From: an uncultured Ruminococcus sp.
GTDB lineage: Bacteria; Bacillota; Clostridia; Oscillospirales; Acutalibacteraceae
Length of the DNA: 12,372 nt
Direction of reading: 5' to 3'
Assembly (NCBI GenBank): GCA_902766305.1
Contig: CACXDE010000050.1
Location: 1-12,372 of the forward strand
Position 1 is the stretch's first letter; each line of letters begins with the position of its first letter. Of this stretch, positions 737 to 9,988 are shown in pieces. The translations under genes and the position numbers were made by a program. The notes beneath the pieces were generated by a model. That model ran no database searches. It was not told the origin of the DNA and saw only the letters and a list, made by a program, of their open reading frames with translations.

Positions 737-2041
737 TCAGCTTACAAGTTCATTCTTTTCGTACAGATATTGTTTTTCATTTGCAATTTCAGTCTTGTGA
801 TCGTTTTTTTGAGAGTAGTATTTTTTCAGGAACAGTGTGTTGTCACCCGGGCGTATTTTTTCAACTGACTGGGCGTGTTTTCCTCTTGTCAGCAGATATG
901 CTTTGTCTATAGGCATATCAAGTACAGTTTCTACCGACTTCTTGACACGGTATGACATATATTCCGCCGTTCTTATATCCTGACCGCCAAGATACAGAAT
1001 CGTGTCACAGGCTGCTTTTATTGAATCGGCGGCGCTCTGACCGTATATTGAATCGAGCTGACTCAGATTCTGGAGAACAAGACTTGCGCTGATCTCTCTT
1101 GAACGTATGCAGTTCATTATTTTATCGAAGTCGGGAAGCTTGTAGGCACAGCAGTCATCGAAGAATATCCGGCACGGAACATCAAGCCGGCTGTTTTCTT
1201 TGCTGTCGGCAAGCCGGCAAAGTGTCGAGAAGGCCTGATGGTAGAATATATTTATGATTGTTGCCATTGAGGAGTCTGTATCGGAGATATTTACGAAGAA
1301 TGCAGACTCACGCTCTCCGAGTTCACGGAAATCAAAGTCTGATTTCTTGCCGAATACCCTTGCGGATTCCCTGAAGTCGAACAGCCACAGTGCATTTGTG
1401 ACGAACTGACATATGCTGCTCCACATTTTTTCGGCTTCCATGGAGTTTTTATATGTATCGTATATCTTTACGGCATAGCTGTGTCTGTTTTCCATGCGAA
1501 GTGTATCGAACATTTTCTTTCCTTTTTCAGTACTCAGTACCTTGAATACTTCAAGGACATTTATCATTGTATGTTCACTCTCAGGCAGAGCCTCAAGCAC
1601 ATAGGCTATGAGGGAAGTTATCACATTGCAGGCGGATTCCTCCCAGAATGGATCTTCATGGCTCTTAACGGGCGTCAGTACCTTAGCAAGCTTTATGACA
1701 TCCTGTTCGCAGTAGTCTGTCGGTGAATTGTATTCTACGTAGTCGAGGGGGTTATATGCGCAGGAGTTTTTCAGATCAGAGAAGTCAATGAGTCTTACTG
1801 AATAGCCCTTGCTTCTGAGATACGGCGCATATGTCTTGTACATGCTGCCTTTTACATCGGTGATTATGTAGCTTCCGTAGGTGTTAAGGATATTCGGAAT
1901 AACATATCCGGTAGTTTTGCCGCTACCGGGAGGACCGAGTATCAGATCGTTATTGTTCAGACATGTTTCATGGGTGTTGTTGCTTACACTTGCATTTCTT
2001 GCGAATACTCGCCTGTTATTATTTATGTACTTCATATTCAT
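737..2041 (-). CDS. VirD4/TraG-type conjugative coupling ATPase without membrane anchor
   Basis: This 434-residue P-loop ATPase is of the type IV coupling-protein family, which brings relaxase-bound DNA to the conjugation channel. The Walker A motif is GPPGSGKTT at residues 36-44. The Walker B region is RIFFDDCCAY at 291-300, with Asp-Asp where the family usually has Asp-Glu. The family-typical tail follows: IRSREISASLVLQNLSQLD at 312-330, then a YG and an ILYLGGQD segment at 348-355. Usual VirD4/TraG proteins are about 550-650 residues with two N-terminal membrane helices. This one starts about 35 residues before Walker A and has none, so it is either a soluble variant or anchored by a partner. 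The ATG at 2041 has AAGGAT five bases upstream; an alternative ATG two codons later is possible. It sits 13 bases after the clpP-like gene. The family assignment is firm; a role in conjugation is inferred. Confidence 0.88.
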   Translation of the reverse strand: MNMKYINNNRRVFARNASVSNNTHETCLNNNDLILGPPGSGKTTGYVIPNILNTYGSYIITDVKGSMYKTYAPYLRSKGYSVRLIDFSDLKNSCAYNPLDYVEYNSPTDYCEQDVIKLAKVLTPVKSHEDPFWEESACNVITSLIAYVLEALPESEHTMINVLEVFKVLSTEKGKKMFDTLRMENRHSYAVKIYDTYKNSMEAEKMWSSICQFVTNALWLFDFRESARVFGKKSDFDFRELGERESAFFVNISDTDSSMATIINIFYHQAFSTLCRLADSKENSRLDVPCRIFFDDCCAYKLPDFDKIMNCIRSREISASLVLQNLSQLDSIYGQSAADSIKAACDTILYLGGQDIRTAEYMSYRVKKSVETVLDMPIDKAYLLTRGKHAQSVEKIRPGDNTLFLKKYYSQKNDHKTEIANEKQYLYEKNELVS

Positions 2042-2054
2042 TTCATCCTTTCTT

Positions 2055-2645
2055 TCAGTTAAGACCAGTGATTATTTTCGTACATATGTTGTTTTTTAGC
2101 GCTTCCTTTGCAGAAAAGAAAGTATCCTTTTCAAGCATAGCGTCAACCCTGGCTCTGTCTATTCCTGTTCTTGATGTGATAAGAGAGGCAATATCCTCAT
2201 GCACATCAAGTATATCGCTGAGCAGTTCCTTTATCTCACAGGGCTTTTTGCCGGCAAGACTTCCTCCGCCGAAGCTGGGATCATGCAGCATTACGGAGCT
2301 ATGCGGGAGCATTTCTCTTTTATCTCCGCAGAGAAAGATCACTCCTGCCATGCTTGCGGCTGTCCCGGTACATACCATGCGGACAGGCGAGCGCATCATA
2401 AGGATATAGTCGCACAGAACAAGTCCGCTTTTTACCTCGCCGCCCGGACTGTTTATATACATGGTTATTTCCTTTGTGCAGTCATCCTCTTCAAGATACA
2501 TAAGCTGCTTGAGTGTTTCATTGCAGCTTTCAGCATCTATCTGATCGACGAGGAATATTTTTCTTCTGGTGAAGAATTCATCCTCTAAATTAACAGGTTT
2601 TTCTCCCTGGGCGGTGTCTTTGAGGAGCATAATTTTGTTTTTCAT
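2055..2645 (-). CDS. ClpP-like serine protease associated with a mobile element
   Basis: This 196-residue protein matches the length and fold signature of the Clp protease proteolytic subunit. The active-site motif TGTAASMAG places the nucleophile at Ser98. The catalytic His121 lies in SSVMLHDPS and the Asp174 in LEKDTFFSA, so the Ser-His-Asp triad is complete. MYINSPGGEV (62-71) matches the conserved strand and oxyanion-region motif. Housekeeping ClpP forms a tetradecamer fed by AAA+ unfoldases. This copy is divergent, has no clpX beside it, and is the first gene of an operon with a coupling ATPase, so it looks like an element-encoded ClpP. The start is set by AAAGGAG at 2653-2659, seven bases before the ATG. 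It could process or degrade a transfer or host protein; the substrate cannot be read from the sequence. Phage head-maturation ClpP-like proteases are an alternative relationship, but no phage genes are visible. Confidence 0.88.
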   Translation of the reverse strand: MKNKIMLLKDTAQGEKPVNLEDEFFTRRKIFLVDQIDAESCNETLKQLMYLEEDDCTKEITMYINSPGGEVKSGLVLCDYILMMRSPVRMVCTGTAASMAGVIFLCGDKREMLPHSSVMLHDPSFGGGSLAGKKPCEIKELLSDILDVHEDIASLITSRTGIDRARVDAMLEKDTFFSAKEALKNNICTKIITGLN

Positions 2646-3211: not shown

Positions 3212-3240
3212 TTGACTTTTGATAAAATAGTCCTTATAAT
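3212..3240 (+). promoter_or_regulatory. Sigma-A type promoter of the helicase-PRTase / DprA cassette
   Basis: TTGACT at 3212-3217 and TATAAT at 3235-3240 are separated by exactly 17 bases, close to the full housekeeping consensus. Transcription would start near 3247, leaving a leader of about 28 bases before the ribosome binding site and ATG at 3275. The surrounding sequence is very AT-rich, which also favours opening. Because the start site lies beyond it, the in-frame ATG at 3200 cannot be the translation start from this promoter. Confidence 0.85.
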
Positions 3241-3274
3241 GATTATAAATTATAATTTAACAGGAGATGTTTAC

Positions 3275-5341
3275 ATGATAATGGAACTGAAAAAACGTGC
3301 TGATGAACTTCTCAAATCAATTTACGGCGAAAGTGCCAGTTTTCGTAATGGACAGTATGAAGCTATCGAAGCTGCACTGACGCATAACCGTACGTTGATA
3401 GTACAGAAAACAGGCTGGGGAAAAAGTCTTATATATTTTATCTGCACAAAGATTCAGCGTGAACGTGGAAAGGGCTTTACTTTAGTTGTCAGTCCGCTGC
3501 TTGCGCTTATGGAAAACCAGCTTGAAGCAGCTGAAAGGATTGGTCTTAACTGTCTTATTGTGAACAGCAGAACAAGAGATATGCGTTCAGAGCAGATCGC
3601 AGCCATGATTGAGGGAAGAGTTGATCTTGTACTGATAACGCCGGAAACACTTTTTTCTGATGATATTCAGGAATGCTTTCCATATTTCAGTATAGGTTTG
3701 TTCGTAGTAGATGAAGCACATTGTATTTCAGATTGGGGACATGATTTTCGTCTGGAATATTCCCGTCTGAACCGTATTGTAAGAAAGATGCCGAAAACTG
3801 TTCCGATACTTGGAACGACTGCTACAGCAAATGACAGGGTAGTTGATGATCTGAAGAAGCAGTTCGGTGAAGATGTATATATATCCAGAGGAACTCTTAT
3901 GAGGGATTCACTGTCTATTCAGGTTTTGCATTTACCGGATTCTTCTGAGCGTTATGCGTGGATCCTCCAGAATGTTCCGAGGCTTCCGGGGAGCGGTATA
4001 ATCTATTGTCTGACTCAGAGAGACTGTGATAATCTTGCCGGTTTTCTCAGAACAAATAATGTAAAAGCGCTGGCATATCATTCAGGTCTTTCTCCGGAGG
4101 AAACAGAAGAGGCAGAAAAGGCTTTGAAGGAAAACAGGATCAAGGTTCTTGTTGCGACGATAAAGCTTGGAATGGGTTATGATAAGGGAGACATCGCTTT
4201 TGTCATTCATTATCAGCAGCCTTCGAATATTGTTGCCTACTATCAGCAGATAGGACGTGCCGGAAGAAATATTGATCGTGCCTATACATTTCTGATGTGC
4301 GGTCGGGAGGACAATGAGATACAGGGGTATTTTATTGAGACAGCATTTCCGACTGAACAGGAAGCAAGGGCAGTGTATGATACTGTTATGTCAAATGCAA
4401 GTACCGGCATAAGTGTAAAGGGCATAGAATCATATGTTAACTGTCGGAATAATCGTGTTAAAAAAGCGCTGATGTTTCTCGTAAATGAGGAAATCATATA
4501 TAAGGATGGTGCAAAATACTATCCTTCATCCAAACAATTTCACTACAATCGTGAGCATTATGAGGAGATAAAAGAGATACGTTATCGTGAACAGCAGCAG
4601 ATGAGAGAACTGACAAAAACAACAGATTGTCTGAGCAGGTTTGTTGTAAACTGTCTTGATGATACAACCGATAAAAAATGCGGTATATGTCAGAATTGTC
4701 TGGGGTATGCTGAATATCCTGAAAAGCCAGACGATGAAGCACTTATGAAAGCACAGGAATACCGTGAACGTCTGCTGATAAAAATTGAACCGAGAAAGCA
4801 GCTGCCAAACAAGAATTTTTCCGGAAACATAAATATACCCGTACCAAACGAGGAGGGCATATGTCTTTCCAAATACGGTGATCCGGGATACGGAATGCTT
4901 GTAAAAAGAGGGAAATATGGAAATCTGCCCGGATTCGGTGAAAAGCTGATCAGCAAATCCGCCGAAGTACTAAAGCCAATTGTTGAAGACAATAATATAA
5001 AGGCAGTTACCTGCGTTCCGTCCCTCCGCAGCAATATAGTTCAGAAATTTGCGGAGCAGCTTGCAGAACGTCTGGGTCTTCCTTTTGTGTCAATGATCTC
5101 AAAGAGCGAGGCTTTGCCGCAAAAAAAGATGGAAAACAGTTATTATCAGTGCAGAAATGCATGGGGTTCATTTAAATTGTCAGTGGGCACTGTTCCCGAA
5201 AGTGTTATTCTGATAGATGATATAGTAGATTCACGCTGGACAATGACTGTTTGCGGATATCTTCTTACACAGGCAGGATGCGAATTTGTATTTCCGTTTG
5301 CTTTGGCGGACAGTTCAGAAAACAGGGGGGATCAGAGTTGA
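3275..5341 (+). CDS. RecQ-type DNA helicase fused to a ComF-like phosphoribosyltransferase domain
   Basis: The 688-residue protein is a superfamily 2 helicase of RecQ type with an extra C-terminal domain. Helicase motifs appear in order: Q-like motif FRNGQ (23-27), Walker A QKTGWGKS (44-51), VVDEAHCISDWGHDFR (144-159), TTATA (181-185), YQQIGRAGR (323-331). A winged-helix-like stretch follows (about 380-420), then a zinc-type cysteine cluster C460, C469, C472, C475. No HRDC domain is seen. Residues about 530-680 resemble ComF-family phosphoribosyltransferases, including AVTCVPSLRS (577-586) and the PRPP-loop-like VILIDDIVDSRWTMT (644-658). The loop has Arg654 where the type I PRTase signature usually has a small residue. 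The start is chosen by AGGAG at 3262-3266, eight bases before the ATG, downstream of a strong promoter; the ATG at 3281 is a less likely alternative. It is coupled to the next DprA-like gene. A role in phage defence or DNA stress is inferred by analogy with ShosTA; helicase identity is firm. Confidence 0.93.
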   Translation: MIMELKKRADELLKSIYGESASFRNGQYEAIEAALTHNRTLIVQKTGWGKSLIYFICTKIQRERGKGFTLVVSPLLALMENQLEAAERIGLNCLIVNSRTRDMRSEQIAAMIEGRVDLVLITPETLFSDDIQECFPYFSIGLFVVDEAHCISDWGHDFRLEYSRLNRIVRKMPKTVPILGTTATANDRVVDDLKKQFGEDVYISRGTLMRDSLSIQVLHLPDSSERYAWILQNVPRLPGSGIIYCLTQRDCDNLAGFLRTNNVKALAYHSGLSPEETEEAEKALKENRIKVLVATIKLGMGYDKGDIAFVIHYQQPSNIVAYYQQIGRAGRNIDRAYTFLMCGREDNEIQGYFIETAFPTEQEARAVYDTVMSNASTGISVKGIESYVNCRNNRVKKALMFLVNEEIIYKDGAKYYPSSKQFHYNREHYEEIKEIRYREQQQMRELTKTTDCLSRFVVNCLDDTTDKKCGICQNCLGYAEYPEKPDDEALMKAQEYRERLLIKIEPRKQLPNKNFSGNINIPVPNEEGICLSKYGDPGYGMLVKRGKYGNLPGFGEKLISKSAEVLKPIVEDNNIKAVTCVPSLRSNIVQKFAEQLAERLGLPFVSMISKSEALPQKKMENSYYQCRNAWGSFKLSVGTVPESVILIDDIVDSRWTMTVCGYLLTQAGCEFVFPFALADSSENRGDQS

Positions 5342-6291
5342 ATCAGAATGCGGAGATCATTTTTATGCTGTGCAGTCATCTTATAAAGAATGAAGAATAC
5401 AAACCGTTTGAACCTTCCGAATGGTCAGGACTTGCCGAAAAGCTGATGAAATCAGGTCTTCAGCCGAAAGAACTGCCTGTTTTGACAGACGCTGACTTTT
5501 TGGAGCTTGGGATCGTAAGTGAAGAAAGGGTGAGAATACGAAAGCTGATAGATCGTGGCCCTAATCTGACATTTGAACTTGAAAAATATGAAAATATGGG
5601 TATTTCTGTCATAACCCGTGCAGACGCTGGATATCCCCGAAAGCTGAAAACAGTTCTTGGAAAAAGCTGTCCGCCGCTGTTCTACTACTGCGGTGATCTG
5701 TCTGTTGCAGAGAATAAATGTATAGGTTTTGTCGGTTCAAGAAATACAGATGAGTGTGACCGGGAATTTGCAGAAAAAATTGTTGGTGTTGTAAATGATC
5801 TTGGATATGAGGTGGTTTCAGGCGGCGCAAAGGGGATTGACAAGATTGCCGGTGATGCGTCACTGCAGAACGGGCGGAGAGCGGTAGCATATATTGCAGA
5901 TTCAATGGTAAAAAGAATAAAGAACCGTGATGTTATATCAGCTGTCCGTGACGGAAGGCTTTTGCTGATGTCCGCAGTTTGTCCTGACGTGGGCTTTACA
6001 GTTGCGACAGCTATGATGCGTAACCGTTATATTTATGCACAGTCGTCAGGAACGGTTGTTGTCCGTTCGGATTACAAAAAGGGCGGCACATGGAGCGGTG
6101 CGTCAGACAGTATCAAACATAAGCTTAGCCCTGTATTATGCTGGAATAATCCTGAATATAAAGGAAATCAGGAGCTGATACGTCTTGGAGCTGTACCGAT
6201 AGATGAGAACTGGAACGGAGTTGTGAACAGTGCGGCGTCAAATGCTGCTATGGCTGAGGAAGAAGCAGTTCAATTGTCATTTTTTGAGTGA
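5338..6291 (+). CDS. DprA/SMF-like Rossmann-fold protein with C-terminal clamp-like motif
   Basis: This 317-residue protein of the DprA/SMF family probably binds single-stranded DNA or a nucleotide. Core family motifs are present: FVGSRN (131-136), VSGGAKGID (160-168), RNRYIYAQSSGTVVV (228-242) and KGGTWSGA (248-255). An N-terminal helical region with a helix-hairpin-helix flavour covers about residues 1-75. The winged-helix C-terminal domain of many competence DprA proteins is absent. Instead the chain ends VQLSFFE, close to the QL(S/D)LF motif used to bind the beta sliding clamp. The start is the TTG at 5338, which overlaps the upstream TGA stop as TTGA. A GGGGGG-type purine ribosome binding site (5325-5330) lies seven bases before it, so translation is probably coupled. 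The frame remains open upstream inside the helicase gene, but that part is rejected. Pairing with a PRTase domain suggests the antitoxin-like partner, as ShosA is for ShosT. Other competence genes are not nearby. Confidence 0.88.
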   Translation: MNQNAEIIFMLCSHLIKNEEYKPFEPSEWSGLAEKLMKSGLQPKELPVLTDADFLELGIVSEERVRIRKLIDRGPNLTFELEKYENMGISVITRADAGYPRKLKTVLGKSCPPLFYYCGDLSVAENKCIGFVGSRNTDECDREFAEKIVGVVNDLGYEVVSGGAKGIDKIAGDASLQNGRRAVAYIADSMVKRIKNRDVISAVRDGRLLLMSAVCPDVGFTVATAMMRNRYIYAQSSGTVVVRSDYKKGGTWSGASDSIKHKLSPVLCWNNPEYKGNQELIRLGAVPIDENWNGVVNSAASNAAMAEEEAVQLSFFE

Positions 6292-6322
6292 AGTCAGCAC
6301 AGTAAGCTAAGAGAACCCCTCC

Positions 6323-6413
6323 GTCAAAAACCGCTCAAACTTCTTGAATATTTTTAATTTAGTATCAAATTCTGATTTATATTTTATTCAGCTTTTTTGT
6401 GGCGGCTTTTGAC
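6323..6413. repeat. Inverted-repeat pair flanking the cassette terminator
   Basis: GTCAAAAACCGC at 6323-6334 and GCGGCTTTTGAC at 6402-6413 are reverse complements at 11 of 12 positions, 67 bases apart. The left arm is preceded by CCCCTCC and the right arm followed by ACCTCCC, then the GGGGAGG arm of the terminator. From memory, this CCCTCCGTCA...TGACACCTCCC arrangement resembles dispersed palindromic repeats in gut Clostridia. It may be a small repeat element that supplies the terminator of the helicase/DprA cassette. Confidence 0.5.
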
Positions 6414-6414
6414 A

Positions 6415-6438
6415 CCTCCCTTTTAGGGGAGGCTTTTT
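6415..6438 (+). terminator. Rho-independent terminator after the helicase/DprA cassette
   Basis: CCTCCC (6415-6420) and GGGAGG (6427-6432) form a six-pair GC-rich stem with a short TTTTAG loop, followed directly by CTTTTTT. It lies about 125 bases after the DprA-like stop codon and closes the two-gene transcription unit begun at 3212. The separate promoter further right (6480-6508) fits this being the unit boundary. Confidence 0.75.
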
Positions 6439-6479
6439 TGCATCTTGGAGCGCAATTATGCAGCTTACATCGGGATTCG

Positions 6480-7385: not shown

Positions 7386-9965
7386 TTAACATCTCCTCAT
7401 AATAGTTTCTTCTATTTCTTTTTCAGTCTGGCGGACTTCACTCAGAAATGCAGCGGATGAAATTCTCAGTGCGCCTCCGCCAAGTATTATCAGCTGTTCC
7501 AGTCCGTCAGATGTCACAACACGCACACGATGCTTCTTTGTAAGTGATCGTGTGACTTTTTCAATATACATATCGGCGGTCTCAGCTTCTTTTGTATATA
7601 TAATGTTTATACCGCCGACCTGTTCAACCTCTCTTGTATTTCCCTTGACCTTATATGCGTCAAAAACAAGTATAAGCTCGCACTTCCTGTAGCCTCTGTA
7701 ATTGCAGAGTATGTTTACAAGCCGGTTTCGTGCAGCGTCAAGATTTTCCTTTGAAAGCCTGTTCAGCTCGTCCCACGCAAAGATAACATTGTATCCGTCC
7801 ACAAGCACATACTCCGGACCTTCATACTGCTGCTTCTGAGTTTTTACTGTGCTTGTATCTTCCTTTGGCGCAGCATGATACTCAACACGCTCTGATATGC
7901 TTTTTCGTCTGACCGGACCGTAGGTGCTTTCAAAAATATCCATAAGCTCTTTGTCAGCGGCGAAGATATCGCTTTGCCTGCGTGACGCTGATGAGTTCTG
8001 GCGGCGGTTATTATCAGGATCGGATGTTTCCCTGCGCAGGACAGAGGAAACGTGCATATGGTTCTTGACTTCATTCCACTTTACGATATGTCCGGCACCG
8101 TGAGAGCAGAAAACAGAATCGCAGGGATTGTCAGTATCGCTGTCGGGATCGTAACCTGTCCGGTTGATAATCTCTTCACTGTTATGACATTTTTCGTAGC
8201 CGCAGAATGTACAGATAAGCTTGCCTTGTCCGTGAGTGTACTGCACGATCTCACTGTTATAATTGCACATTTCCGAAACCGGCGCACGTCCTGTTATTAC
8301 CGTAAACTCGCCCTCTGTAGTAGGAGTGTCAAACTCTGCATTCATTTTTTGTATATCAGAAATTGCCCTGCCGGTATTTTCGGAAGGTATTTCCAATGTG
8401 AAGTCATACATGGGTTCAAGAAGAATTGATCTTGCGCTTCTCAGTCCCTGTCTTAAAGCACGGAAGGCAGCTTCACGCAGATCTCCTCCGACAGTGTGCT
8501 TTATATGATCCCTTCCGGCGGCAAGTATTATCTCCATATCAGTGACAGGCGCTCCTGTAAGCACACCTTTGTGAGCGTATTCGTACAGCATTGAAAGTAT
8601 AAGCCGCTGTTTTGTCCTGTCAAGCATTTCCTCACGGCATTCTGACCTGAACAGCAAACCGCTGTTTCTGGGCGCAGGCTTAAGGATAAGATGAACCTCC
8701 GCATAATGTCTTAGCGGTTCAAAATGTCCCACGCCTTCAATTATGTTTTCTATGGTTTCCTTGTAGATAATACGTCCCTGACTGAAACCGGTCTCAAACC
8801 CGAATCTGTCATATATCAGTCTTTTCAGTATTTCAAGCTGTATATCGCCCATAAGTCTCAGACCTATAGTTCCGCTTTTTTTGTCAAAGGAAATGTTCAG
8901 CTGAGGGTCTTCCTGTTCAAGGCAGCGCAGCTTCTCCAGAGCGGTATGTATATTCACGTTTTCCGGCAGTATCAGAGAGTATGACAGAACAGGCTGCAAA
9001 ACTGGCGACAGAGTTTTTTCCTGCGCGCCAAGGCAGTCTCCGCAGCGTGTAAACGTCAGACCTGTTACAGCGCATACAGTTCCGGCCTGCACCTCATCCG
9101 GACAGGTGAACTTGTCTCCTGAATAGATAAAAATACGGTTTACCTTTTCTCCGTTTACATTTTTGCTGTCCGGAATCATATCCCTGACCTTCAGACTTCC
9201 GCCGGTTATTTTCATGAATGTGAGTCTGTTTTTCTGCTTATCCTCACCGATCTTGAAAACCTTTGCGGCAAATTCTTCTTTATATTCAGGCATTACCGTG
9301 AATCTGTCGAGACATTCGAGAAATTCGTTTATTCCTGAAAGCTTAAGTGCTGAACCAAACATACAGGGAAAGACCTGTCTGTGCTTTATTGCCTTTACAA
9401 TGCTTTCATGTCTTATCACTGAGCTGTTGTCAAACTCTTCAAGCATTTCGTTACTGCAAACGGCAAGCTCTTCATAAAAGCTGCTGCTGCCTTCATCTGC
9501 AAAATCAATGCAGCCGTCACCAAATCTGTCTTTGAGCTTTGCAAGCATTATACCTCTGTCAGCTCCATCCAAATCCATTTTGTTTACAAAGATAAAGCAT
9601 GGTACGCTGTACCTTTCAAGCAGCTTCCAAAGCGTTGCGGTATGGCTTTGTATACCGTCTGTTCCGCTGATAACGAGTATGGCGTAATCTGGTATCTGGA
9701 GCGTTCTCTCTGTTTCTGCTGAAAAGTCAGCGTGTCCGGGAGTGTCAAGCAGAGTAAATATACTGTCCTTGTATGAGAGTACCGCCTGTTTTGAAAATAC
9801 GGTTATACCTCTTTCGCGTTCTATGGAATAAGTGTCAAGAAAGGAGTCTCCGTGATCGACCCTTCCAAGCTTTTTCAGATTGCCGGAGCAGTACATCAGT
9901 GCTTCTGTCAGAGTTGTTTTTCCTGAATCAACATGGGCAAGTATGCTTATTGCTGCTCTTTTCAT
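7386..9965 (-). CDS. Tet(M)/EF-G-like translational GTPase fused to a NYN (YacP/Rae1-like) nuclease domain
   Basis: From the ATG at 9965 this is 859 residues; residue numbers here count from a GTG three codons upstream. The GTPase motifs are G1 AHVDSGKTT (13-21), G2 RERGIT (53-58), G3 DTPGH (77-81) and G4 NKMD (131-134), with SALK (208-211) for G5. EF-G-like domains II-V follow to about 640 in the order of the ribosomal protection proteins Tet(M)/Tet(O), which are about 640 residues long. A Cys/His-rich segment (CTFCGYEKCHN 588-598, VFCSHGAGH 621-629) and a polar linker (about 645-715) precede a NYN domain at about 720-848. That domain has VLVDGYNVIFAW (723-734), LVFDAYK (769-775), EAETADMYIE (796-805) and TSDG (821-824), supplying the expected acidic residues. 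Rae1 cuts mRNA in the ribosomal A site, so ribosome-directed cleavage is inferred. Upstream ribosome binding signals are weak, so the start is uncertain. Tetracycline resistance is possible but not implied. Confidence 0.9.
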   Translation of the reverse strand: MKRAAISILAHVDSGKTTLTEALMYCSGNLKKLGRVDHGDSFLDTYSIERERGITVFSKQAVLSYKDSIFTLLDTPGHADFSAETERTLQIPDYAILVISGTDGIQSHTATLWKLLERYSVPCFIFVNKMDLDGADRGIMLAKLKDRFGDGCIDFADEGSSSFYEELAVCSNEMLEEFDNSSVIRHESIVKAIKHRQVFPCMFGSALKLSGINEFLECLDRFTVMPEYKEEFAAKVFKIGEDKQKNRLTFMKITGGSLKVRDMIPDSKNVNGEKVNRIFIYSGDKFTCPDEVQAGTVCAVTGLTFTRCGDCLGAQEKTLSPVLQPVLSYSLILPENVNIHTALEKLRCLEQEDPQLNISFDKKSGTIGLRLMGDIQLEILKRLIYDRFGFETGFSQGRIIYKETIENIIEGVGHFEPLRHYAEVHLILKPAPRNSGLLFRSECREEMLDRTKQRLILSMLYEYAHKGVLTGAPVTDMEIILAAGRDHIKHTVGGDLREAAFRALRQGLRSARSILLEPMYDFTLEIPSENTGRAISDIQKMNAEFDTPTTEGEFTVITGRAPVSEMCNYNSEIVQYTHGQGKLICTFCGYEKCHNSEEIINRTGYDPDSDTDNPCDSVFCSHGAGHIVKWNEVKNHMHVSSVLRRETSDPDNNRRQNSSASRRQSDIFAADKELMDIFESTYGPVRRKSISERVEYHAAPKEDTSTVKTQKQQYEGPEYVLVDGYNVIFAWDELNRLSKENLDAARNRLVNILCNYRGYRKCELILVFDAYKVKGNTREVEQVGGINIIYTKEAETADMYIEKVTRSLTKKHRVRVVTSDGLEQLIILGGGALRISSAAFLSEVRQTEKEIEETIMRRC

Positions 9966-9988
9966 TATTTTCACATCTTTCGTGGCAT

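What the first reader, a model, noticed from the sequence alone, without database searches (positions are those of the whole stretch)
3212..6439. Helicase-fused ShosTA-like cassette: RecQ-PRTase plus DprA-like partner
Seen: one promoter, two overlapping genes, one terminator; gene one is a RecQ-type helicase ending in a ComF-like PRTase domain, gene two is DprA-like. Known: ShosTA is an anti-phage toxin-antitoxin pair of a PRTase protein and a DprA homologue. Inferred: this is a variant in which a helicase sensor or effector is fused to the PRTase toxin, with the DprA-like protein restraining it. It sits beside a mobile-element operon, as defence genes often do.
Basis: partly seen in the sequence, partly recalled or inferred. 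Interest (0 to 1): 0.85.

Follow-up and report, generated by a model that had tools for sequence, protein, structure and literature searches.

The report
Known phage-defence pair with clamp-binding antitoxin
This bacterium carries a known kind of toxin-antitoxin phage-defence gene pair (PsyrTA), and its antitoxin ends in a short tag that probably docks it on the cell's DNA-replication clamp, a hint at how such systems may notice an infection.

Summary
In detail: one promoter-like site, two genes overlapping by 4 nt, one terminator-like hairpin; gene 1 is a RecQ-type helicase with a C-terminal PRTase fold, gene 2 is DprA-like. It is not a new helicase-fused ShosTA. Both proteins are members of an existing family: PsyrT (797.6 bits, full length) and PsyrA (294.5 bits) of PsyrTA, published in E. 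coli as RqlHI, where toxicity maps to the PRTase domain and the DprA-like partner binds and restrains it. The three RqlH residues mutated in print are conserved here.

What I found beyond this is in the antitoxin. It lacks the C-terminal HTH of RqlI and ends, after a variable disordered tail, in QLSFF, a beta-clamp (DnaN) binding-type motif. A QxxLF-type motif occurs in the tail of 42 of 44 dereplicated relatives (shuffled tails: mean 1.8) and in 0 of 25 ordinary DprA. It sits in the linker (QPELF) of E. coli PsyrA. The published RqlI 1-320 truncation would cut this motif in a same-length E. coli homologue yet still neutralises the toxin, so the motif probably targets or senses replication forks. 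Clamp binding is inferred, not shown. My searches found no report of it.

The parts
3212..3240 (+). promoter-like site TTGACT-17-TATAAT
   Evidence: 11 of 12 consensus matches; prediction only
3275..5341 (+). PsyrT/RqlH-like toxin: RecQ-type helicase + C-terminal PRTase, 688 aa
   Evidence: PADLOC PsyrT 797.6 bits, residues 6-682 of 688
3290..4369 (+). RecQ-type SF2 helicase core (Walker A K50, DEAH D146); approximate borders
   Evidence: Pfam DEAD/Helicase_C; RecQ structures to E 6.5e-55; residues near-invariant in 39 aligned proteins
4550..4702 (+). RecQ zinc-binding-like region (C452, C469, C472, C475)
   Evidence: Pfam RecQ_Zn_bind 23.3 bits, below cut-off 25; cysteines near-invariant in 39 aligned proteins
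4862..5317 (+). PRTase (ComF-like) domain; approximate borders
   Evidence: AF2 pLDDT 89.5; Foldseek ComF, APRT, HPRT, PurF, ShosT
5216..5242 (+). PRPP loop DDIVDSRWT (D648, D649, S653, W655, T656)
   Evidence: near-invariant in 39 aligned proteins; D649 aligns with D663 of E. coli RqlH homologue
5338..6291 (+). PsyrA/RqlI-like antitoxin, DprA fold, 317 aa, TTG start overlapping the toxin stop
   Evidence: PADLOC PsyrA 294.5 bits; AF2 pLDDT 90.9, best PDB match ShosA
5587..6201 (+). DprA Rossmann (SLOG-like) domain
   Evidence: Pfam DNA_processg_A E 1.3e-34, residues 84-288
6271..6285 (+). C-terminal clamp-binding-type motif QLSFF (residues 312-316) after a disordered tail
   Evidence: tail 300-317 pLDDT <50 except residue 314; motif in tail of 42 of 44 dereplicated relatives; 0 of 25 canonical DprA
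6415..6438 (+). intrinsic terminator-like hairpin and T run
   Evidence: 7 pairs, 5 G-C; prediction only

Best explanation
The two genes are a PsyrTA (RqlHI) toxin-antitoxin and candidate phage-defence operon. At rest the DprA-like PsyrA binds the PRTase domain of PsyrT and keeps it silent (shown in the E. coli homologues, inferred here). PsyrA is in turn docked on the replication clamp DnaN by its C-terminal QLSFF motif (inferred from conservation), so the complex sits at replication forks, where the RecQ-type helicase and the DprA fold can meet single-stranded DNA. Abnormal replication, such as a phage taking over the fork or a collapsed fork, releases the PRTase, which acts in a PRPP-loop-dependent way, damages DNA metabolism and stops the infected cell (genotoxicity shown in E. 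coli; chemistry and trigger unknown).
For: Family: PsyrT 797.6 bits over 6-682, PsyrA 294.5 bits. In E. coli, growth inhibition and SOS induction by RqlH need the PRTase domain and its PRPP-loop D663; RqlI co-precipitates with full-length RqlH but not with RqlH 1-509 (PMC4670107). K49, D148 and D663 of the E. coli homologue align with K50, D146 and D649 here. Patchy: PsyrT in 3 of 37 genomes of the genus, 3 of 391 of a class sample, 5 of 398 of a phylum sample, this genome counted in each; the 9 distinct genomes all have the partner adjacent. Motif: QxxLF-type in the last 20 aa of 42 of 44 representatives and 116 of 120 listed homologues; shuffled tails mean 1.8, maximum 7 of 44; 28 of 34 PsyrA of the loci set against 7 of 302 other ORFs there by the same loose pattern, and 0 of 302 by the canonical one; 0 of 25 canonical DprA. 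Q312 invariant and F316 at least 90% in 34 aligned sequences. Own PolC ends in QLTLFM. QL[S/D]LF or QxxLF is the stated clamp consensus (PMC12309361, passages). Gammaproteobacterial PsyrA: QxxLF in the linker of 109 of 120. The same motif class near the C-terminus of longer PsyrA in Nostoc, two Bacillota and a viral contig. RqlI 1-320 still neutralises; in a same-length E. coli homologue the motif is at 320-324.
Against: No binding to DnaN was measured or modelled as a complex. The motif is missing by the loose pattern in 6 of 34 PsyrA of the loci set, three of them Synergistota, and in L090; Acinetobacter has only QGNLL. In one study E. coli PsyrTA had no detectable protective activity when expressed in K-12 and slowed growth (PMC12409345, passages). 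[quoted passage not shown] Two close relatives of PsyrT lack PsyrA, one of them beside SbcCD-like genes, which fits a repair role. QPELF has an atypical second residue. Defence genes are only some of the neighbours.
Confidence: 0.7

Rival explanations
1. It is PsyrTA, but its main role is genome maintenance (a RecQ-like repair helicase with a regulator), not phage defence; the clamp motif serves repair at forks.
For: RqlH occurs without RqlI in many bacteria (PMC4670107); L072 has PsyrT directly followed by genes that read as SbcD and SbcC (named by reading the translations); Arthrobacter carries it alone among metabolic genes. [quoted passage not shown]
Against: Rare and patchy within the genus (3 of 37); nested beside type I RM genes on an E. 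coli plasmid and between BREX genes on an Acinetobacter plasmid; some neighbours match Hachiman, RM and TmtA models.
Confidence: 0.2
2. The conserved tail is another short motif: a C-terminal degron for antitoxin turnover, or a contact to PsyrT itself.
For: Antitoxins are often labile (general knowledge); the motif is at the extreme C-terminus here; a ClpP-like protease gene lies nearby.
Against: The same QxxLF signature is internal in Gammaproteobacteria and in L089 and L095, which a C-terminal degron would not be; RqlI 1-320 still neutralises, so the stretch beyond residue 320 is not needed to hold the toxin.
Confidence: 0.15
3. It is a selfish addiction module of the neighbouring conjugative element, with no defence function.
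For: VirD4-like CD1115-family coupling protein gene on the other strand upstream; L054 also has a VirD4-like neighbour; TA logic.
Against: No element borders were looked for or found. Of five flanking proteins of the window searched against 39 other loci, only an EF-G-like match in L051 and the VirD4-like match in L054 appeared, so the pair is not tied to one neighbourhood.
Confidence: 0.12
4. One reading: a new variant in which a helicase is fused to the ShosTA toxin.
For: ShosA is the nearest solved structure of gene 2 and ShosT is among the PRTase matches.
Against: PsyrT/PsyrA score 797.6 and 294.5 bits against 77.6 for ShosA; RecQ-PRTase + DprA was in print in 2015.
Confidence: 0.03

Closest known systems
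PsyrTA / RqlHI (PADLOC PsyrT PDLC03928, PsyrA PDLC03927)
   Same: Same gene order, full-length RecQ-PRTase toxin, DprA-fold antitoxin; residues mutated in RqlH conserved
   Different: Antitoxin is 317 aa, lacks the C-terminal HTH of RqlI (400 aa) and ends in a QLSFF clamp-type motif; in an E. coli homologue of RqlI the related QPELF lies at 320-324, in the linker
ShosTA
   Same: PRTase toxin with DprA-like antitoxin; best solved-structure match of gene 2 is ShosA
   Different: No helicase in the example read (Pf-phage ShosT: HAD + PRTase + zinc ribbons); the one ShosA read has no QxxLF motif
DpdF and other RecQ-like defence helicases
   Same: Helicase core similarity (DpdF up to 296.8 bits)
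   Different: Much weaker than PsyrT (797.6 bits); the partner is PsyrA
SocAB and RipAB (toxin-antitoxin systems aimed at the clamp)
   Same: Link between TA and DnaN (PMC12795458, abstract, outline and passages)
   Different: There the toxin acts on the clamp; here the antitoxin appears to be a clamp client

Membership tests
PsyrTA / RqlHI | RecQ-type helicase with C-terminal PRTase, full-length profile match | tested here: met
   797.6 bits, residues 6-682, profile 5-686/689; PRTase fold
PsyrTA / RqlHI | Adjacent downstream DprA-like gene, toxin first | tested here: met
   5338-6291, 4-nt overlap, PsyrA 294.5 bits
PsyrTA / RqlHI | Residues K49, D148 and PRPP-loop D663 of RqlH | tested here: met
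   K50, D146, D649 in the alignment with the E. coli CD306 homologue
PsyrTA / RqlHI | C-terminal HTH in the antitoxin (reported as dispensable) | tested here: not met
   Model ends with a disordered tail after residue 300; profile matched only to 314 of 398
PsyrTA / RqlHI | Toxic alone, neutralised by partner; phage protection | not testable with these tools
   needs expression in a laboratory strain
ShosTA | ShosT-type toxin without helicase | tested here: not met
   gene 1 has a full RecQ-type helicase
ShosTA | ShosA-like DprA antitoxin | tested here: inconclusive
   ShosA 77.6 bits, but PsyrA 294.5
DnaN clients with a clamp-binding motif | QL[S/D]LF or QxxLF in a disordered segment | tested here: met
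   QLSFF at 312-316, with F in place of L at the fourth position; tail pLDDT <50
DnaN clients with a clamp-binding motif | Physical binding to the clamp | not testable with these tools
   only single chains could be modelled

The most novel reading that the evidence does not exclude
PsyrA is a clamp-docked sentinel: across PsyrTA the antitoxin, not the toxin, is a DnaN client, and the defence senses infection through the state of the replication clamp or fork. The motif has been kept while moving between the linker, the end of longer proteins and the bare C-terminus, so fork docking is a core property of the family and gives it a trigger mechanism.
Probability: 0.45. Interest if true: 0.75.

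Novelty: new variant of a known kind. Interest (0 to 1): 0.5.

Why it matters
But in what I could read the function and trigger of PsyrTA/RqlHI are open (the RqlHI paper calls function the chief question), and ShosTA is listed among systems activated by phage SSB and may respond to a replication or recombination intermediate (PMC10732053, passages). A conserved clamp-type motif in the antitoxin makes the sensing step directly testable with one small mutation in a laboratory strain, would fit the published antitoxin truncation that still neutralises, and would add a class in which the antitoxin, not the toxin, contacts the clamp.

Tried and rejected
Rejected: new helicase-ShosTA fusion (PADLOC PsyrT/PsyrA). 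Rejected as explanation of the tail: chance (shuffles; 0 of 302 canonical and 7 of 302 loose in other ORFs) and inheritance from ordinary DprA (0 of 25; of the canonical DprA places, 27 were fetched as loci and 25 of these gave a DprA match). A clamp motif at the end of the toxin: 0 of 120 in the last 30 aa. Rfam (gathering threshold) and tRNA: nothing. Viral contigs: no relative of gene 1 confirmed; one PsyrA. Phage records: four matches to gene 2, none covering 80% of it. Literature: searches; two were swamped by unrelated words, and 47 listed 20 of 44. No title or abstract in these listings was seen to link DprA-like antitoxins with the clamp; PMC4670107 has no word beginning with 'clamp', 'DnaN', 'replisome' or 'phage' in its main text. 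The library holds few subscription papers and no bioRxiv library, so this absence is weak. Phage protection by PsyrTA in Millman 2022, and the SSB work behind the PMC10732053 statement, are recalled, not read; Sberro 2013 was not held. An empty-site test for mobility was not done.

Counting choices: L063 and L067 (run off the contig) were dropped before 28 of 34; L078 (broken) was left out of the alignments from then on; the set contains near-duplicates (L056-L058, L041/L060). Motif information at positions 0, 3 and 4 is circular because the search pattern anchors there; +1 (L/M/I 40 of 42), +2 (S/T 40 of 42) and +5 (D/E 34 of 41) are not. In the neighbour scan 131 of the 163 listed neighbours, from 33 loci, were given, long ones cut at 900 codons; the tallies do not say which locus each family lies in, and helicase and methyltransferase models can cross-match. 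The HTH of Nostoc, L096, L098 and L102 PsyrA was judged by eye from likeness to the E. coli protein; Pfam did not call it in Nostoc or L096.
Full report
What is there. On the + strand a promoter-like site (3212-3240), gene 1 (3275-5341, 688 aa), gene 2 (5338-6291, 317 aa, TTG start) and a terminator-like hairpin (6415-6432 plus T run) form one compact operon. Gene 1 is a RecQ-type helicase: Pfam DEAD and Helicase_C above cut-off, RecQ structures from E 6.5e-55 on. The sequence-level PRTase match is below cut-off (13.2 bits), so I tested the fold: residues 484-688, modelled with an alignment of 36 sequences, gave pLDDT 89.5 and Foldseek put ComF first (E 5.2e-6, TM-score 0.52 by query), then APRT, HPRT and PurF, with ShosT 8zvd also listed (E 2.7e-4). 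Gene 2 is DprA-like; its model (pLDDT 90.9) is nearest to E. coli ShosA (8zva, E 2.7e-16) and to DprA structures.

What family. PADLOC names gene 1 PsyrT over its whole length (797.6 bits) and gene 2 PsyrA (294.5 bits; ShosA 77.6). This is the system published as RqlHI in E. coli (PMC4670107; abstract, outline, sections 12 and 15 and passages read), which itself names PsyrT as the RqlH orthologue. There RqlH alone induces SOS and filamentation; deleting the PRTase domain or changing D663 removes growth inhibition and SOS induction; RqlI neutralises and co-precipitates with full-length RqlH but not with RqlH 1-509. [quoted passage not shown] K49, D148 and D663 of an E. coli homologue align with K50, D146 and D649 of the window protein, and the loop D648 D649 S653 W655 T656 is near-invariant in 39 aligned proteins. 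PMC9122126 (passage) groups shosTA, syrTA and rqlHI as systems with DprA-like antitoxins; PMC5512222 (passage) also describes a PRTase fused to an SFII helicase coupled with DprA; PMC8790059 (passages) lists PsyrTA as a validated TA family with a RecQ toxin of unknown target. So the 'helicase-fused ShosTA' is an established kind.

Pairing and spread. Of 37 relatives from genome contigs, 34 carry the PsyrA relative directly downstream (one of them, L078, broken), L047 ends just after the start of the partner, L070 and L072 lack it. In sampled genomes PsyrT was found in 3 of 37 of the genus (and in 0 of the 23 further genomes of the order in the same call), 3 of 391 of the class and 5 of 398 of the phylum, this genome counted each time; the nine distinct genomes all have the partner adjacent. 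The E-value limits (1e-60, 1e-100) miss distant orphans. The RqlHI paper states that 99.6% of the Gram-positive strains in its set encode RqlH alone; in this branch the pair is the rule. On an E. coli plasmid PsyrTA lies between type I RM genes (L079) and on an Acinetobacter plasmid between BREX genes (L081). In 131 neighbours of the loci, hits at E <= 1e-20 include HamA/HamB, REase_I, MTase_II, GajB, TmtA and SoFic models, each in one member (the second list shows 25 of 71 families), beside many metabolic genes: an accessory gene, sometimes with other defence genes.

The antitoxin tail. Gene 2 ends ...AVQLSFFE. Its last 18 residues have pLDDT below 50 apart from one. Among 34 aligned homologues Q312 is invariant and F316 at least 90% conserved. 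In the 120 listed homologues a motif lies within the last 15 aa in 106, and a loose QxxLF-type motif within the last 20 aa in 116; after dereplication at 70% identity, 42 of 44, against a shuffle mean of 1.8 and a maximum of 7 in 2000 shuffles. In the loci set 28 of 34 PsyrA have it by the loose pattern. Controls: ordinary DprA of relatives 0 of 25; other ORFs in the same loci 0 of 302 canonical and 7 of 302 loose; PsyrT ends 0 of 120. PMC12309361 (passages) gives the clamp-binding consensus as QL[S/D]LF, more generally QxxLF, and PolC of B. subtilis carries QLSLF at its C-terminus; the PolC of this very genome ends ...SSQLTLFM.

The motif moves. E. coli plasmid PsyrA (462 aa) has QPELF at 346-350 in the variable linker before its C-terminal region, and 109 of 120 homologues have QxxLF there (Q 98%, L 97%, F 93%); these are close relatives (74% identity and more). 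Among 11 PsyrA outside the close clostridial set that I read one by one, 9 have QxxLF or QLSLL behind the Rossmann domain: E. coli plasmid and chromosome, L089 and L095 (linker), Nostoc (QLSLL), L096, L098 and the viral contig L102 (at the end, after an HTH-like stretch judged by eye), L097 (short tail); L090 has none and Acinetobacter only QGNLL. A broken Sinorhizobium gene was left out of this count. The complete Synergistota proteins (L062, L064, L066) end shortly behind the Rossmann domain and have none.

Function of the tail. In an E. coli chromosomal PsyrA of the published length (400 aa; strain CD306, not F11 itself) the motif is at 320-324. The published truncation 1-320 would leave only its Q, and yet it gave nearly complete rescue in F11 and effectively rescued MG1655 expressing RqlH. 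If F11 RqlI is alike, the motif is not needed to hold the toxin, which leaves targeting or sensing. PMC10732053 (passages) lists ShosTA among systems activated by phage SSB and says it may respond to a replication or recombination intermediate. I therefore propose that PsyrA docks the complex at the clamp and that disturbed forks release the PRTase. Shown: toxin, antitoxin and binding roles in E. coli homologues (by others), motif conservation (here). Inferred: DnaN binding, fork sensing, PRPP chemistry, phage protection by this copy. Against: one study saw no protective activity of an E. coli PsyrTA expressed in K-12 (PMC12409345, passages), and orphan PsyrT next to SbcCD-like genes fits repair.

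Verdict. Observation confirmed; interpretation partly supported; system known; the clamp-type motif is, as far as my searches show, unreported, and is what makes the locus worth a test.

Noticed in passing
window 7386-9974 (-): 862-aa EF-G-like protein, best NCBIfam match tetracycline ribosomal protection protein family (396.4 bits, well under its cut-off 775); the C-terminal part was not assigned.
   Followed up: partly
window 2055-2645 and 737-2041 (-): ClpP-like protease (nearest PHROGs: head maturation proteases) directly upstream of a VirD4-like CD1115-family coupling protein: an odd pairing in a possible conjugative element.
   Followed up: partly
L072 7983-13966: PsyrT/RqlH-like gene without PsyrA, directly followed by genes that read as SbcD and SbcC (read from the translations): an orphan RqlH perhaps in a repair operon.
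   Followed up: no
L101 3001-7772: E. coli AVS0935: an IS3-like insertion splits PsyrT between helicase and PRTase, leaving a ComF-annotated PRTase piece with PsyrA.
   Followed up: no
L091 3974-6055: Haloarchaeal plasmid with a PsyrT-like helicase-PRTase and no PsyrA annotated or found within the 10-kb stretch.
   Followed up: no
L094 3977-5824: Streptomyces plasmid with adjacent DprA-like and free-standing phosphoribosyltransferase genes, possibly another DprA-PRTase pair.
   Followed up: no
L071 10043-11134: PsyrA in a MAG labelled Methanobrevibacter ends QTSLFNFK; an archaeal host would use PCNA (general knowledge), so either contamination or a PIP-like variant.
   Followed up: no
L004 (G000 contig C31 5421-5870): Free-standing 224-aa frame in the window's genome matching the PsyrT profile over its PRTase part, E 3.6e-14, probably ComF (not checked).
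   Followed up: no
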